Assembly: GCA_017935675.1 (NCBI GenBank)
Contig: JAGBHE010000095.1
Location: 62,001-126,000 of the forward strand
Reading direction: 5' to 3'
Origin: Clostridia bacterium
GTDB lineage: Bacteria > Bacillota > Clostridia > UBA1381
DNA: 64,000 nucleotides
Part shown: positions 35,315 through 39,969 of the stretch, in pieces
Layout: each line of letters begins with the position of its first letter
Position numbering within the stretch: the stretch's first letter is position 1
The notes under the pieces: model-generated
Database searches by the model: none
What the model saw: the letters and a program-made list of their open reading frames with translations, nothing else
Told to the model about the DNA's origin: nothing
Position numbers and translations under genes: made by a program

Positions 35315-36136
35315 CTACCTTCCGTCAATTTTTTCTTTAATCATTCGTCCTTCACGCAAAAGCTCCCTTAAAACAACATCATCGCCTGATGTTATTGCTT
35401 TGGAATACTTTTTCAGATTTTCAATAAGCCCGTCAATTTCAGCGGAAAGGAAATCCCTGTTTTCAAGAAACAGCTCAGTCCACATGTTTTCATTAAGCCA
35501 TGCAACACGCGTAAGATCCTTAAGGCTTCCCGCAGAATACCCCGGATGCTTCGGATATTCCGGGCTTTTTACCATTGCGTTTGACACTACGTGCGCAAGC
35601 TGGGAAGTAAAAGCAATAACGCTATCATGATTTTCCGCCGTAGTGTATTTAAAGGTTTTAAAACCGATTTTTCCGAATACCTCTTCCATAACGGGCTCTT
35701 TCTCAGCGGAACAAATTATCAGCGACGCGCCGCCGAACAAATCAGCATTTGAAAACCCATAGCCTGAATGCTCGGTTCCCGCCATAGGGTGAGCCCCTAC
35801 GAATTTAAATCCGCATTTTTCGGCAATCGGAACACATTTATCACACACAAGTCTTTTTGTTCCTCCGCAGTCGCAAACCAAAGCACCCTTTTTAATACGC
35901 TTGCAGAATTTTTCAAGGTAACTGACCGTTGCTTCCGGATATAATGCAGAAATAATCATATCACATTCCTCGGGAAGCATTTCACCGTCAATAGTACCGT
36001 CATACACGGCAGAGGTTATAATTTCAGGTTCAATATCATAGGCTGTAACAGAATAATCGGTATATTTCTTTAAAGCCTTTGCCATCGAACCGCCTATCAA
36101 ACCAAGTCCTATTATTCCGATTTTATTTATATGCAT
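35315..36136 (-). CDS. tyrA: Prephenate dehydrogenase
   Basis: Oxidative decarboxylation of prephenate to 4-hydroxyphenylpyruvate, the Tyr branch. The 273-residue protein has the NAD site KIGIIGLGLIGGSMAKALKK and the substrate motif FVGAHPMAGTEHSGYGF. It ends soon after the helical dimerisation domain and has no C-terminal ACT domain, unlike many Gram-positive TyrA proteins, so direct Tyr feedback may be weak. The start overlaps the aroF end by 14 bases. Confidence 0.95.
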   Translation of the reverse strand: MHINKIGIIGLGLIGGSMAKALKKYTDYSVTAYDIEPEIITSAVYDGTIDGEMLPEECDMIISALYPEATVSYLEKFCKRIKKGALVCDCGGTKRLVCDKCVPIAEKCGFKFVGAHPMAGTEHSGYGFSNADLFGGASLIICSAEKEPVMEEVFGKIGFKTFKYTTAENHDSVIAFTSQLAHVVSNAMVKSPEYPKHPGYSAGSLKDLTRVAWLNENMWTELFLENRDFLSAEIDGLIENLKKYSKAITSGDDVVLRELLREGRMIKEKIDGR

Positions 36137-37127
36137 ACGGTAATATCGCCCTCACTTTGTTCGCTAAGTCATCAAACGCTTCAGGCGTAAGAGACTGCTG
36201 TCCGTCACACAATGCATGCGGCGGGTCGTTATGAACCTCAATTATGAGTCCGTCCGCACCGCAGGCAGCAGCGGCAAGGGACATCGGTTCAACAAGCTTT
36301 GCAATTCCTGTTGCATGGCTCGGGTCAACAATTATCGGAAGATGTGTCAGTGATTTAAGAAGCGGTATAGCCGATAGATCCAGCGTATTTCTTGTCTTTT
36401 GCTCAAAGGTTCTTATTCCGCGCTCACAAAGTATAACCTTTTCATTTCCGCCTGCCATAATATATTCGGCACTCATCAGAAGCTCGTCAATGGTGCTTGA
36501 TAAGCCTCTTTTTAAAAGTATTGGCTTGTCGGTATGCCCCAGCTCTTTAAGAAGTTCAAAGTTCTGCATATTTCTGGCTCCGACCTGAATAACATCAACA
36601 TTTTCAAAAAGCGGCAAATGTGATATATCCATAATCTCAGTAACAATGGGAAGACCTGTTTTCTCCTTTGCTGCCATGAGCAGGTCAATTCCCTTCTGAC
36701 GCAGCCCCTGGAACGCATACGGTGATGTTCTCGGCTTAAATGCGCCGCCTCTAAGCAATCCTGCACCGGATTTCTTGACGCTTTCGGCAATAGAGCAAAG
36801 CTGCTGCTCGGATTCAACGGAACAGGGCCCTGCAATTATTGAAAAATTACCGCCGCCGATTTTGGCATCACCCACCTCAACAACCGTATCAAGGGGATGG
36901 AATTTTCTGTTAGCACTTTTATAAGGCTCGCTGACACGCTTAACAAGCTTAACAATGTCAAGCGATTCCATCATATCGGTATCAAGTGATGATGTGTCAC
37001 CAATCAACCCGACTACCGTGCTTTCAAGTCCTTTACTTACATGAAGCTCAAAATCCTTGGATTTAAGCCACGAAATAAGGTTGTCAAATTGTTTTTGTTC
37101 ATAGTTTTCGTTTAATACGAGTATCAT
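36123..37127 (-). CDS. aroF: DAHP synthase, type I-beta with N-terminal ferredoxin-like regulatory domain
   Basis: Commits PEP and erythrose 4-phosphate to aromatic synthesis. The 334 residues comprise a regulatory domain of about 70 residues (MILVLNENYEQKQFDNLISW onward) and a TIM barrel with FSIIAGPCSVESEQQL, GGAFKPRTSPYAFQGL, IQVGARNMQNFELLKELG and IIVDPSHATGIAKLVE. Related enzymes with this N-terminal domain are inhibited by Tyr or Phe. The ATG at 37127 has an AAAGG site. A longer in-frame start at 37187 would lie at the edge of the terminator and is rejected. It is the first structural gene after the attenuator. Confidence 0.95.
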   Translation of the reverse strand: MILVLNENYEQKQFDNLISWLKSKDFELHVSKGLESTVVGLIGDTSSLDTDMMESLDIVKLVKRVSEPYKSANRKFHPLDTVVEVGDAKIGGGNFSIIAGPCSVESEQQLCSIAESVKKSGAGLLRGGAFKPRTSPYAFQGLRQKGIDLLMAAKEKTGLPIVTEIMDISHLPLFENVDVIQVGARNMQNFELLKELGHTDKPILLKRGLSSTIDELLMSAEYIMAGGNEKVILCERGIRTFEQKTRNTLDLSAIPLLKSLTHLPIIVDPSHATGIAKLVEPMSLAAAACGADGLIIEVHNDPPHALCDGQQSLTPEAFDDLANKVRAILPYAYK

Positions 37128-37159
37128 ATTTTTCAGCCTTTCTTGATTAAAATTATCAA

Positions 37160-37184
37160 CACAAGCTTCGCGCGACGGCTTGTG
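37160..37184 (-). other. Hairpin between the attenuator and aroF
   Basis: CACAAGC (37160-37166) and GCTTGTG (37178-37184) form a perfect 7-bp stem with a GC-rich 11-nt loop. It is not followed by a U tract. It lies past the terminator and before the aroF ribosome site; a role in protecting the read-through mRNA is possible but unproven. Confidence 0.4.
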
Positions 37185-37188
37185 CATG

Positions 37189-37225
37189 AAAAAAGGATTA
37201 CAGGATGTTGTGTTACCTGTAACCC
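37189..37225 (-). terminator. Intrinsic terminator in the aro leader (attenuator)
   Basis: On the minus strand GGGTTACAGG (37225-37216) pairs with CCTGTAATCC (37204-37195), a 10-bp stem with one G-U pair and an 11-nt loop, followed directly by U6 (37194-37189). It sits after the leader ORF and before aroF, with no gene of its own to end. It is therefore best read as a conditional terminator for the whole aro operon. Confidence 0.85.
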
Positions 37226-37265
37226 TTATAATACATTATGTATATTCAACAAAATGCTATAAACT

Positions 37266-37349
37266 TTACAACGCAACACAAACAGGCTTTCTAAAGTAAA
37301 AATAAAAGCCTGTAAAGTAATATTGAGCTGTAAAGCTGTATAACTTCAT
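37266..37349 (-). CDS. Phe/Tyr-rich leader peptide of the aro operon
   Basis: A 27-codon ORF from ATG 37349 to TAA 37266, too short for usual gene calling. An AGGAGG ribosome site lies 10 bases upstream. The peptide begins MKLYSFTAQ. Residues 10-19 read YYFTGFYFYF and the end is RKPVCVAL. Tyr is at 4, 10, 11, 16, 18 and Phe at 6, 12, 15, 17, 19: ten aromatic residues of 27 and no Trp. The downstream genes make Phe and Tyr. A hairpin whose 5' arm covers codons 13-15 and a U-tailed terminator 40 bases past the stop complete a classical attenuator. No homologue is claimed; the call rests on layout and composition. Confidence 0.85.
   Translation of the reverse strand: MKLYSFTAQYYFTGFYFYFRKPVCVAL
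37282..37313 (-). promoter_or_regulatory. Pause/anti-antiterminator hairpin within the leader ORF
   Basis: On the minus strand ACAGGCTTT (37313-37305) pairs with AAAGCCTGT (37290-37282): 9 bp with a 14-nt loop. The 5' arm holds codons 13-15 and the loop holds the Phe/Tyr codons 16-19. A ribosome stalled on those codons would block this hairpin and release the downstream arm, as expected of segments 1:2 in a classical attenuator. Confidence 0.65.
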
Positions 37350-37420
37350 TGTGAAATATCCTCCTGTATGCAGAATACGGATTAAATATGTAAATTAAAA
37401 ATATATCCGCTTATGCCATT

Positions 37421-37449
37421 ATAATACCACGATAATTGTCAAATGTCAA
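37421..37449 (-). promoter_or_regulatory. Promoter of the aro operon leader
   Basis: TTGACA (37449-37444) and TATTAT (37426-37421) with a 17-nt spacer on the minus strand. A TATAAT overlaps three bases downstream but has poor spacing. The predicted leader RNA runs from about 37414 to aroF, roughly 290 nt, and includes the leader ORF, pause hairpin and terminator. Confidence 0.75.
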
Positions 37450-37590: not shown

Positions 37591-37944
37591 ATGAAGGGCA
37601 TAGTAAAGGGAACGCTTTTTTCACTTATTTCAATTGCTGTTATTGCATCTGCAGCCGCTGCAATTTCGCTGTTTGCCGAAATTCCCGATGCAATACTCAA
37701 AACTGTCTTGTGGTCAATGGCAGGTCTTTGTGTATTTATCGGTTCATTGCTTGTTTCAAAAGGAGCACAGTCTTATAAGTCGCTGCGAGGCATCATAAGT
37801 GCCGCTGCAACAATCCTTGGATTGCTTACGGTATCCTCTGTTGCAAACAAGGGGATTCCGTCAAACGGCGGATTTTATACGTTGGCTCTCATTGCAGCAA
37901 TTTGCGGCATACTCGGTGCTCTTATGGGCTCTCGTCAGGGATAG
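37591..37944 (+). CDS. Small integral membrane protein, TIGR04086-like
   Basis: A 117-residue protein with about four hydrophobic segments (for example FSLISIAVIASAAAAISLFA and TLALIAAICGILGALMG) and short loops. It resembles the TIGR04086 membrane family of Firmicutes, which has no known function. A GGAGGTGA site precedes the ATG by 5 bases. Transcribed away from the aro operon; I could not identify a convincing promoter in 37450-37575. Its 3' end overlaps the convergent kinase gene by 23 bases. Confidence 0.8.
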   Translation: MKGIVKGTLFSLISIAVIASAAAAISLFAEIPDAILKTVLWSMAGLCVFIGSLLVSKGAQSYKSLRGIISAAATILGLLTVSSVANKGIPSNGGFYTLALIAAICGILGALMGSRQG

Positions 37945-39304
37945 TATCAATCGGCATGGTAAAGGTGAAGGTACTGCCGCAGCCGGGGCTGCTTACAACG
38001 TTCAGTCCGGCATTAAAGAGCTTTGCAATCTCCTTTACCATGGAAAGTCCAAGTCCCGTGCTTCCGCTTTCGTCACGTTGTCTTGCGGTGTCAATCTGAT
38101 AGAAGCGGTCCCATATACGGTCAATATGCTCAGGTGCAATACCTTCTCCGTCATCAGTAACAGAAAAAACAATATTTCCGTCTTTTTTTTCTAAAGAAAC
38201 AGAAACGCTTCCGTTATCACGTCCGTATTTAAACGCATTGCCGATAAGGTTGGCAAAAACGCGTGTAAGCATAACCCTGTCTGTAAAAATTATAATCTCC
38301 GGCTCAATATTCTTTTCAAGGCGTATACCTCGCTTTGAAACCTCCGATTGATCGTCACATATAAAACTCAAAAGCTCGGAGACATCCGTTTCCTCCGAAG
38401 AAAGCCTGAAAACACCCCTGTCCATTCTTGACATTGCAAGAAGCTCAGAAATAAGCTTTGACATCCGCTCCGCCTGCTCCTTTATATCTCCCGCTGCTTC
38501 CTTATACTCATGTTCACTGCAAGGGCAGTTCAGCATATACTCACATTCTGATATAATTACTGCTACAGGTGTGCGAAGCTCATGAGATGCATCAGAGGTA
38601 AACTGCTTTTCCGCTTCAAAATTTTTTTGAAGCTTCTCAAGCATATCATCAAAGGTTGATGCAAGACGATGTATTTCATCATCTCCCCTTTCAAGCCCAA
38701 TGCGCTCCGAGAGGTCGTTGCTGTCACAAATTTTACGCGCAGTTTCAGTTATTTTTTCTACAGGGCTCAGCAAACGCTTTGATATAAAATAACCTCCGCA
38801 GGAAGCAAAAATTATAAGCAAAGAAATCATCAGCACATTTGCAAGCAAAGAAGAACCGGCAATCATTGACGCGTTTGATTTGCTGATAATACCTCTTACC
38901 CAGACCCTGTATGTATTCCCCACCCAGATAAGGCGGTCATATACATAGTAATTCTGCCCGGCACGGGAAACCTCAGAAATAACATTATTATGAAATACCT
39001 GTTCTGCCGACGCATCAAAATCAGGCGGAAGCTCTCCGTACAAAAGTTTTCCGTCTTCCGTGTATACCGAAATATGTACGCCTTCATCAAAATATCTGAA
39101 GCTCGGACGAAAATAAAGATCACCGTGATTAACGTCAATTCTTGCAGAATTATCACTCACATGACTTGCAAGCATTCTTCTTGTATCTCCTTCGATAAGC
39201 GTCTTGCTTGATACTATCATGAGAATTGTTATTATAATGCCGAGAATCAGCATTGCGGCTGCATACCAGATGGAAAGTCTGACCTTGATTGATAGGTTTT
39301 TCAT
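37922..39304 (-). CDS. Sensor histidine kinase (HisKA, HAMP)
   Basis: A 460-residue membrane kinase. It has an N-terminal membrane helix (about 12-32), an extracellular domain of about 125 residues, a second helix near 160-185, a HAMP region (SKRLLSPVEKITETARKI), the phosphoacceptor segment FTSDASHELRTPVAVI and ATP-binding motifs NLIGNAFKYG, VTDDGEGIAPEHIDRIWDRF and GSTGLGLSMVKEIAKLF. The start overlaps the response-regulator stop as ATGA, so they form a pair. The signal is unknown. Confidence 0.93.
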   Translation of the reverse strand: MKNLSIKVRLSIWYAAAMLILGIIITILMIVSSKTLIEGDTRRMLASHVSDNSARIDVNHGDLYFRPSFRYFDEGVHISVYTEDGKLLYGELPPDFDASAEQVFHNNVISEVSRAGQNYYVYDRLIWVGNTYRVWVRGIISKSNASMIAGSSLLANVLMISLLIIFASCGGYFISKRLLSPVEKITETARKICDSNDLSERIGLERGDDEIHRLASTFDDMLEKLQKNFEAEKQFTSDASHELRTPVAVIISECEYMLNCPCSEHEYKEAAGDIKEQAERMSKLISELLAMSRMDRGVFRLSSEETDVSELLSFICDDQSEVSKRGIRLEKNIEPEIIIFTDRVMLTRVFANLIGNAFKYGRDNGSVSVSLEKKDGNIVFSVTDDGEGIAPEHIDRIWDRFYQIDTARQRDESGSTGLGLSMVKEIAKLFNAGLNVVSSPGCGSTFTFTMPIDTIPDESP

Positions 39305-39969
39305 ACCTGACTCAGCTCCTTAAGAAAATATCCGTTATCCTCCTCTACATATACATTTGCATTTAATGACTTAAGCTTTTTATTTATGTAAGAAATATAC
39401 ATACGAACTATAAGTTCATCTCCGACATCATTCCATATTTTATGATAAAAGGTTTTTGATGTAATAGGATAGCCTTTTTCAGAAATCAGCATGGTAAGCA
39501 TTGTACACTCCATATTGTTAAGTCTCAGGGCGGAGTCATCGTTTTTTATCTCCAGCTGAGCTGTATCGACCACAACATTACCTACAGAATAGATTGTCTG
39601 CTTTGTTTTTTCAAGCATGCGCGTCTGCGCACGCATTCTCGCAAGAAGTTCTTCAGACGCAAAGGGCTTGGTGAGATAATCGTTTGCACCTGCGTCAAGA
39701 CCATTAATTCTGTCTTCAAGCTCTGCCTTTGCAGTGAGCATTATAATAGGCGTGTCTATACCTGCATCACGTATTTTTTTCATCGCATCAATACCGCTCA
39801 TAACCGGCATCATTACATCAAGAACAAGTATATCGTATTCGTTTTTCATAGCATATTCAAGAGCTGTGCCGCCGTCATAAACAGCGTCAACCTCACATCC
39901 GTTATGAGTTAATATTGCCGCTATTACTTTAGATAAATGCTTTTCATCCTCTGCATATAAAACCTTCAA
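39301..39969 (-). CDS. OmpR-family response regulator
   Basis: A 222-residue regulator paired with the kinase that follows. The receiver domain has the acidic pocket YAEDEKHL, the phosphorylated Asp in YDILVLDVMMPVMSGIDAM, and TAKAELEDRINGLDAGANDY with the conserved Thr; the Lys is in YLTKPFASEELLARM. The C-terminal winged helix includes LNNMECTMLTMLISEKGYPI. The stop codon of the alarmone synthetase gene lies 18 bases upstream. Confidence 0.93.
   Translation of the reverse strand: MKVLYAEDEKHLSKVIAAILTHNGCEVDAVYDGGTALEYAMKNEYDILVLDVMMPVMSGIDAMKKIRDAGIDTPIIMLTAKAELEDRINGLDAGANDYLTKPFASEELLARMRAQTRMLEKTKQTIYSVGNVVVDTAQLEIKNDDSALRLNNMECTMLTMLISEKGYPITSKTFYHKIWNDVGDELIVRMYISYINKKLKSLNANVYVEEDNGYFLKELSQV

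What the first reader, a model, noticed from the sequence alone, without database searches (positions are those of the whole stretch)
37189..37449. Undescribed-looking Phe/Tyr leader-peptide attenuator controlling the aro operon
Between a TTGACA-N17-TATTAT promoter and aroF lie, in order: an AGGAGG site, a 27-codon ORF with ten Phe/Tyr codons (residues 10-19 are YYFTGFYFYF), a 9-bp hairpin whose loop carries the control codons, the ORF stop, and a 10-bp terminator with U6. The downstream genes make Phe and Tyr. This is the complete arrangement of ribosome-mediated attenuation known from enteric pheA and trp operons. In Firmicutes amino-acid operons are usually controlled by T-boxes or TRAP, and I see no T-box sequence here. 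I do not know of a described Firmicute aro leader with this peptide, but cannot search.
Basis: partly seen in the sequence, partly recalled or inferred. Interest (0 to 1): 0.92.

Follow-up and report, generated by a model that had tools for sequence, protein, structure and literature searches.

The report
Phe/Tyr leader-peptide attenuator of aro operon
Before its operon for making phenylalanine and tyrosine, this Clostridia-type bacterium carries a short gene whose stalled translation most likely switches the operon on when those two amino acids run low; the same switch, in many sequence versions, precedes this operon across many Clostridia and I found no earlier description of it there.

Summary
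Behind a TTGACA-N17-TATTAT promoter lie an AGGAGG site, a 27-codon ORF (MKLYSFTAQYYFTGFYFYFRKPVCVAL) with ten Phe/Tyr codons, a 9-bp hairpin over the control codons, an intrinsic terminator, then aroF-tyrA-aroB-aroA-aroC-pheA. The relatives settle it. 71 of 110 AroF loci have such an ORF, nearly always with a terminator after it. In the 78 scanned named loci, 50 have at least five Phe/Tyr in ten residues; the antisense control never exceeds three. Control-region codons are TTY/TAY (418) against TTR (2). Terminator sequences differ freely, yet each leader's own antiterminator pairs better than shuffled controls (mean z -2.3, 62 leaders). Rfam and T-box searches are negative, while the same genome keeps T-boxes before pheST and thrS. 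Best explanation: classic ribosome-mediated attenuation sensing Phe and Tyr, not Trp. The mechanism is known; the closest precedent is the predicted Acholeplasma uORFC-13-1 aroF motif. So this is a new, widespread member of a known kind. No expression data exist here.

The parts
37421..37449 (-). Promoter TTGACA-N17-TATTAT with TG before the -10
   Evidence: 11 of 12 matches; TTGACA-like / TATAAT promoter just upstream of the leader also visible in L005-L007, L009
37360..37365 (-). Shine-Dalgarno AGGAGG, 10 nt before the leader ATG
   Evidence: SD retained before the leader ORFs of relatives
37266..37349 (-). Leader ORF MKLYSFTAQYYFTGFYFYFRKPVCVAL*, 27 codons
   Evidence: relatives' counterparts in 71 of 110 AroF loci
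37293..37322 (-). Control codons 10-19 (YYFTGFYFYF); main stall site probably codons 15-19
   Evidence: codon usage across 62 leaders TTT 193, TTC 33, TAT 95, TAC 97 against TTA 0, TTG 2
37282..37313 (-). Hairpin 1:2 (37313-37305 with 37290-37282), disrupted by a ribosome on the control codons
   Evidence: control region pairs with the following 45 nt more than shuffles in 58 of 62 leaders
37265..37285 (-). Antiterminator 5' strand (segment 2) CTGTTTGTGTTGCGTTGTAAA, overlapping the end of the ORF
   Evidence: -16.3 kcal/mol with 37223-37205; GTGTTGC invariant in five close relatives
37205..37223 (-). Antiterminator 3' strand (segment 3) GTTACAGGTAACACAACAT = terminator 5' arm and loop
   Evidence: AACAC in the terminator loop invariant in close relatives while the stem differs
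37189..37227 (-). Intrinsic terminator: AAGGGTTACAGG / loop TAACACAACAT / CCTGTAATCCTT, then U run to 37189
   Evidence: -15.6 kcal/mol; a terminator follows the leader in 65 of 71 loci
36123..37127 (-). aroF, DAHP synthase with N-terminal ferredoxin-like domain; first gene of the controlled operon
   Evidence: PF00793, PF18152; start chosen from the conservation
35315..36136 (-). tyrA, prephenate dehydrogenase
   Evidence: PF02153, PF20463
34254..35309 (-). aroB, 3-dehydroquinate synthase
   Evidence: PF01761, PF24621
33067..34257 (-). aroA, EPSP synthase
   Evidence: PF00275
32025..33074 (-). aroC, chorismate synthase
   Evidence: PF01264
30876..32009 (-). pheA, chorismate mutase-prephenate dehydratase
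   Evidence: PF01817, PF00800

Best explanation
A ribosome-mediated transcription attenuator that senses charged tRNA-Phe and tRNA-Tyr. Transcription starts at the promoter at 37421-37449 and a ribosome begins the leader ORF. With enough Phe and Tyr it reaches the stop codon and covers segment 2 (37285-37265); the terminator 37227-37193 forms and RNA polymerase stops at the U run before aroF. When Phe or Tyr is short, the ribosome stalls in codons 10-19, opens hairpin 1:2 and frees segment 2, which pairs with segment 3 (37223-37205, terminator 5' arm and loop) before the 3' arm is made; polymerase reads on into aroF-tyrA-aroB-aroA-aroC-pheA. With no ribosome, hairpin 1:2 takes up segment 2 and the terminator forms, so the operon stays off. 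Shown here: the parts, their conservation, coding constraint on the Phe/Tyr codons, and mutually exclusive pairings above chance. Inferred: initiation, stalling, termination and the response to starvation.
For: Anatomy. Relatives: leaders before aroF in 21 of the 30 AroF loci (the window's own included) and, in the separate set of named loci, 50 of 78 have an SD-preceded ORF with >=5 Phe/Tyr per 10 residues, antisense control never above 3. Coding: Phe/Tyr 6.7 per 10 codons in frame against 1.6 and 1.9 in the other frames; TTY+TAY 418 codons against TTR 2; Trp 9 residues in 62 peptides. Within conserved Phe/Tyr codons of close pairs, differences fall at positions 3 (16) and 2 (12), none at position 1. 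Structure: antiterminator better than dinucleotide shuffles, mean z -2.28 over 62 leaders, and than swaps between loci, mean z -1.77. Hairpin 1:2 above shuffles in 58 of 62. Modelled stall leaves segment 3 sequestered (mean 0.76) compared with ribosome at stop (0.39), higher in 56 of 62. Operon makes Phe and Tyr; leaders precede aroF with tyrA, aroB, aroA or pheA after it. In its own genome the peptide profile finds only this site.
Against: No expression, ribosome-profiling or termination data. At equilibrium the terminator is predicted to win even with a stalled ribosome in most leaders, so the switch must be kinetic. It needs a ribosome close behind the polymerase, and in B. subtilis the polymerase is reported to outrun the ribosome (cited in PMC9226507). 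39 of 110 AroF loci have no recognised leader.
Confidence: 0.9

Rival explanations
1. A translation-independent RNA switch (T-box or unknown riboswitch) controls the terminator and the ORF is incidental.
For: The leader is strongly folded and T-boxes exist in this genome before pheST and thrS.
Against: No Rfam match in the window, and none with a relevant family up to E 10 in the leader; no T-box consensus at the leader. What is conserved is the Phe/Tyr coding and the pairing scheme, not a fixed RNA sequence.
Confidence: 0.03
2. The ORF encodes a small aromatic-rich peptide with its own function, merely ending before a terminator.
For: The ORF is conserved and aromatic-rich; some leaders share motifs such as FAAEYFYF or GKAYFGLA.
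Against: Length and sequence vary widely and only Phe/Tyr density is constant; the C-terminal Cys-Cys seen in many peptides coincides with TGTGTTGC needed for the antiterminator; found directly before aroF and its terminator.
Confidence: 0.03
3. Leader translation acts mainly another way: a ribosome at the stop codon affects aroF translation or Rho access, the terminator being secondary.
For: Many of these Clostridia are uncultured and their coupling is unknown; in B. subtilis RNA polymerase outpaces the ribosome (as cited in PMC9226507).
Against: A strong intrinsic terminator (median -19.7 kcal/mol) ends a median of 104 nt after the last control codon, and its 5' arm is the antiterminator's partner. 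In the window aroF has its own SD outside these structures.
Confidence: 0.04

Closest known systems
uORFC-13-1 motif, Acholeplasma aroF (PMC8632094)
   Same: uORF with promoter, RBS and at least one Phe codon, just before a terminator, exclusively upstream of aroF.
   Different: Reported in Acholeplasma and unassigned environmental sequences only, 24 examples, a U run coding Phe; here ten Phe/Tyr codons, a defined antiterminator, and Clostridia. Relationship not tested.
Enteric pheA attenuator (Rfam RF01859 Phe_leader) and trp attenuator
   Same: Leader ORF rich in the product amino acid, hairpins 1:2, 2:3, 3:4 with the same logic (general knowledge).
   Different: No sequence match; senses Phe and Tyr together; controls aroF-to-pheA; antiterminator includes the terminator loop.
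Leu/phe leader of Lactococcus lactis (RF01743, PMC2864571)
   Same: Firmicute cis-regulatory leader with Phe codons (and general knowledge).
   Different: No match; confined to Lactococcus lactis in that paper.
Firmicute leader-peptide attenuators: hisS/hisZ in Bacilli (PMC2965389), his in Peptostreptococcaceae and others (PMC9413887), ilv in S. aureus (PMC5794164)
   Same: Same mechanism class in the same phylum, used where others have T-boxes.
   Different: Other amino acids and operons.
T-box leader (RF00230)
   Same: Senses aminoacylation of tRNA and controls an antiterminator; used in this genome for pheST and thrS.
   Different: Reads uncharged tRNA directly, no ORF; absent here.

Membership tests
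Ribosome-mediated transcription attenuators (pheA/trp type) | Short ORF with SD between promoter and first structural gene | tested here: met
   conserved in relatives
Ribosome-mediated transcription attenuators (pheA/trp type) | Clustered codons for the operon's product, under coding constraint | tested here: met
   operon products
Ribosome-mediated transcription attenuators (pheA/trp type) | Intrinsic terminator before the first gene | tested here: met
   65 of 71 leader-bearing loci
Ribosome-mediated transcription attenuators (pheA/trp type) | Antiterminator exclusive with the terminator | tested here: met
Ribosome-mediated transcription attenuators (pheA/trp type) | 1:2 hairpin involving the control-codon region | tested here: met
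Ribosome-mediated transcription attenuators (pheA/trp type) | Read-through rises on starvation and depends on translation of the leader | not testable with these tools
   needs reporter assays
Rfam RF01859 Phe_leader (enteric pheA) | Covariance-model match | tested here: not met
   none up to E 10
Rfam RF01743 Leu/phe leader | Covariance-model match | tested here: not met
T-box (RF00230) | T-box consensus and covariance-model match at the leader | tested here: not met
uORFC-13-1 (Acholeplasma aroF) | Match to its published consensus | not tested
   no model held; text description only

The most novel reading that the evidence does not exclude
An old class of Phe/Tyr leader-peptide attenuators, inherited with the AroF operon across many Clostridia families, in which the antiterminator nucleates on the terminator loop. 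If it works, the lead ribosome must keep close to RNA polymerase in these bacteria, unlike the uncoupled transcription reported for B. subtilis.
Probability: 0.45. Interest if true: 0.68.

Novelty: new member of a known kind. Interest (0 to 1): 0.52.

Why it matters
Control of Phe/Tyr synthesis in a large group of Clostridia, many from animal guts, gets a concrete, testable mechanism. It adds a broadly distributed case of ribosome-mediated attenuation in Firmicutes, where T-boxes dominate, and in this genome both sensors of Phe supply coexist: a T-box on pheST, a leader peptide on the biosynthetic operon. Because the mechanism needs tight coupling of ribosome and polymerase, it offers a natural reporter for coupling in bacteria where this has hardly been studied. 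The leader also occurs in named species with genomes not marked as metagenome assemblies (Oscillibacter valericigenes, Angelakisella massiliensis, Bittarella massiliensis).

Tried and rejected
DNA similarity search with the leader: only the congener is clearly recovered; nearly everything else is at noise level, as expected for a fast-changing leader. Peptide-profile search: strong hits sit before aroF; the weak hits inspected (E > 5e-4) lay inside other genes or without a leader context, one at a contig end is unresolved. The first upstream scan missed minus-strand loci because genome-search loci are not re-oriented; corrected. Looked for a His leader before hisG: none in that stretch; trpE and ilvB were not found in the genome, so other leaders could not be compared. 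An equilibrium model of the three ribosome states does not separate them (the terminator wins in most); only the sequential version does. The swap control for the antiterminator is weakened by related loci sharing motifs; the shuffle control is the cleaner one.

Full report
OBSERVATION. The 27-codon ORF 37349-37266 reads MKLYSFTAQYYFTGFYFYFRKPVCVAL with five Phe and five Tyr. It is the only SD-preceded small ORF in the window with eight Phe/Tyr in ten residues; the next best ORF has five; in 5000 dinucleotide shuffles of the leader none reaches seven. The transcript folds at -67.2 kcal/mol against -38.9 for shuffles, z -7.3.

OPERON. Pfam identifies aroF (DAHP synthase with ferredoxin-like domain), tyrA, aroB, aroA, aroC and pheA (chorismate mutase-prephenate dehydratase) at 37127-30876, closely spaced or overlapping. 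The operon therefore holds both branches to Phe and Tyr, and no trp gene. trpE was not found in the 90.6%-complete genome. The aroF start is most likely 37127, where the family's conserved N-terminus begins, rather than the ATG at 37187 given by the mechanical ORF list.

THE MISSING PART. Segment 2, 37285-37265 (CTGTTTGTGTTGCGTTGTAAA, across the ORF's end), pairs with segment 3, 37223-37205 (GTTACAGGTAACACAACAT, the terminator's 5' arm and loop), at about -16 kcal/mol, as strong as the terminator itself at -15.6. With the upstream RNA removed, as under a stalled ribosome, the minimum-energy structure is the antiterminator, although the centroid contains the terminator. Segment 2 can also pair back on the control-codon region, which is the 1:2 hairpin of the classic scheme.

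CONSERVATION. AroF relatives were taken from 60 related genomes and from named public genomes. Upstream of aroF, 71 of 110 loci have an SD-preceded ORF dense in Phe/Tyr, 65 of them with a recognised terminator after it. In the scanned named set of 78, 50 have at least five Phe/Tyr in ten residues; on the opposite strand of the same stretches none exceeds three. Examples: MSTFTFAAEYRYFSFTYYFGKAYFGLAENECV (Oscillibacter valericigenes, L071), MNKFAFAAEYYFTFIFTFAYFSKGSLRLAAKGASC (Angelakisella massiliensis, L056), MSNFFFASFYYYFTDRLR (L060). On an AroF tree the trait needs 19 changes against 32 for shuffled labels, so it is clustered but patchy; failures of detection, gains and losses are not separated. 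Some titles name other phyla (Treponema, Planctomycetaceae, Lentisphaerae); these are MAGs and I place no weight on them.

CODING, NOT JUST U-RICHNESS. In the clusters, TTT+TTC+TAT+TAC make 418 codons and TTA+TTG two; Phe/Tyr density is 6.7 per ten codons in frame and 1.6 and 1.9 in the other frames (the in-frame value is inflated because the cluster was chosen in that frame). In close pairs, differences inside conserved Phe/Tyr codons fall at position 3 (16) or position 2 (12), none at position 1. Phe and Tyr exchange for each other, so the sensor seems to treat them as one signal. Trp makes 9 residues in 62 peptides.

STRUCTURE. Terminator sequences are largely unrelated between groups, yet each leader's segment 2 matches its own segment 3: mean z -2.28 against shuffled segment 2, -1.77 against partners from other loci. 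In five close relatives GTGTTGC in segment 2 and AACAC in the terminator loop are invariant while the terminator stems differ with both arms changing together. This accounts for the Cys-Cys or Leu-Cys-Cys near the end of many peptides (TTGTGTTGC). The control region pairs with the following 45 nt above shuffles in 58 of 62. In a sequential model, before the 3' arm is made, the terminator's 5' arm is held by upstream RNA with probability 0.76 when the ribosome is at the last control codon, 0.39 when it is at the stop, 0.58 without a ribosome. Covering more RNA lowers pairing in any sequence, so this shows consistency, not proof; the shuffle tests carry the weight.

MECHANISM. Ribosome-mediated attenuation. 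Ample Phe/Tyr: the ribosome reaches the stop, covers segment 2, the terminator forms. Shortage: stall on codons 10-19, the antiterminator forms first, the operon is read. No translation: 1:2 and the terminator form, operon off. The steps in vivo are inferred.

ALTERNATIVES. T-box or riboswitch: no Rfam match, no T-box consensus there. In the same genome T-boxes precede pheST and thrS, so the bacterium uses both kinds of sensor. Functional peptide: only the Phe/Tyr density is constant. Chance: excluded by conservation.

NOVELTY. The mechanism is classical. In Firmicutes, leader peptides have been reported or predicted for hisS/hisZ in Bacilli (PMC2965389), his operons in several orders (PMC9413887) and ilv in S. 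aureus (PMC5794164). The nearest is uORFC-13-1, upstream of aroF in Acholeplasma (PMC8632094). I found no description for aroF in Clostridia in Rfam 15 or the open-access library; subscription papers, including the attenuation survey by Lopatovskaya et al. 2010 (cited in PMC4833913), could not be read. Verdict: a new, widespread member of a known kind. The wider point is coupling: in B. subtilis RNA polymerase is reported to outrun the ribosome (Johnson et al. 2020, read only as cited in PMC9226507), whereas this leader implies that in these Clostridia the ribosome keeps up.

Noticed in passing
L001 1501-1738 (G000:C6) and L002 1501-1718 (G000:C40), outside the window: The window's genome has T-boxes before pheST and thrS, so tRNA-Phe charging is presumably sensed by a T-box for the synthetase and by a leader peptide for biosynthesis.
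   Followed up: partly
L012, L015, L016, about 90 nt upstream of aroF: AroF relatives without the Phe/Tyr leader have other stable hairpins followed by GUAG(C/U)A(C/U)GG(C/U)AGAAAGGA just before the start codon; possibly a different, unnamed control element. No Rfam match.
   Followed up: partly
L020, L021, L024-L027, L029: A sister group has its own leader type (FYYF..SRSFFGFGYFCC) with a nearly fixed terminator GGGAACTCATT...ATGAGTTCCC; in L020 and L029 the antiterminator strand is TGATGAGTT.
   Followed up: partly
whole genome G000: No trpE and no ilvB found although all 14 control genomes were positive; possible Trp and branched-chain amino acid auxotrophy, or gaps in a 90.6%-complete assembly.
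   Followed up: no
36123-37187 (-): The mechanical ORF start of aroF (37187) lies at the end of the terminator's U run; the conserved start is 37127, so automatic annotation may make the protein 20 residues too long.
   Followed up: yes
37922-39969 (-): A sensor histidine kinase and response regulator pair lies upstream of the operon on the same strand, separated by a small plus-strand ORF (37591-37944).
   Followed up: no
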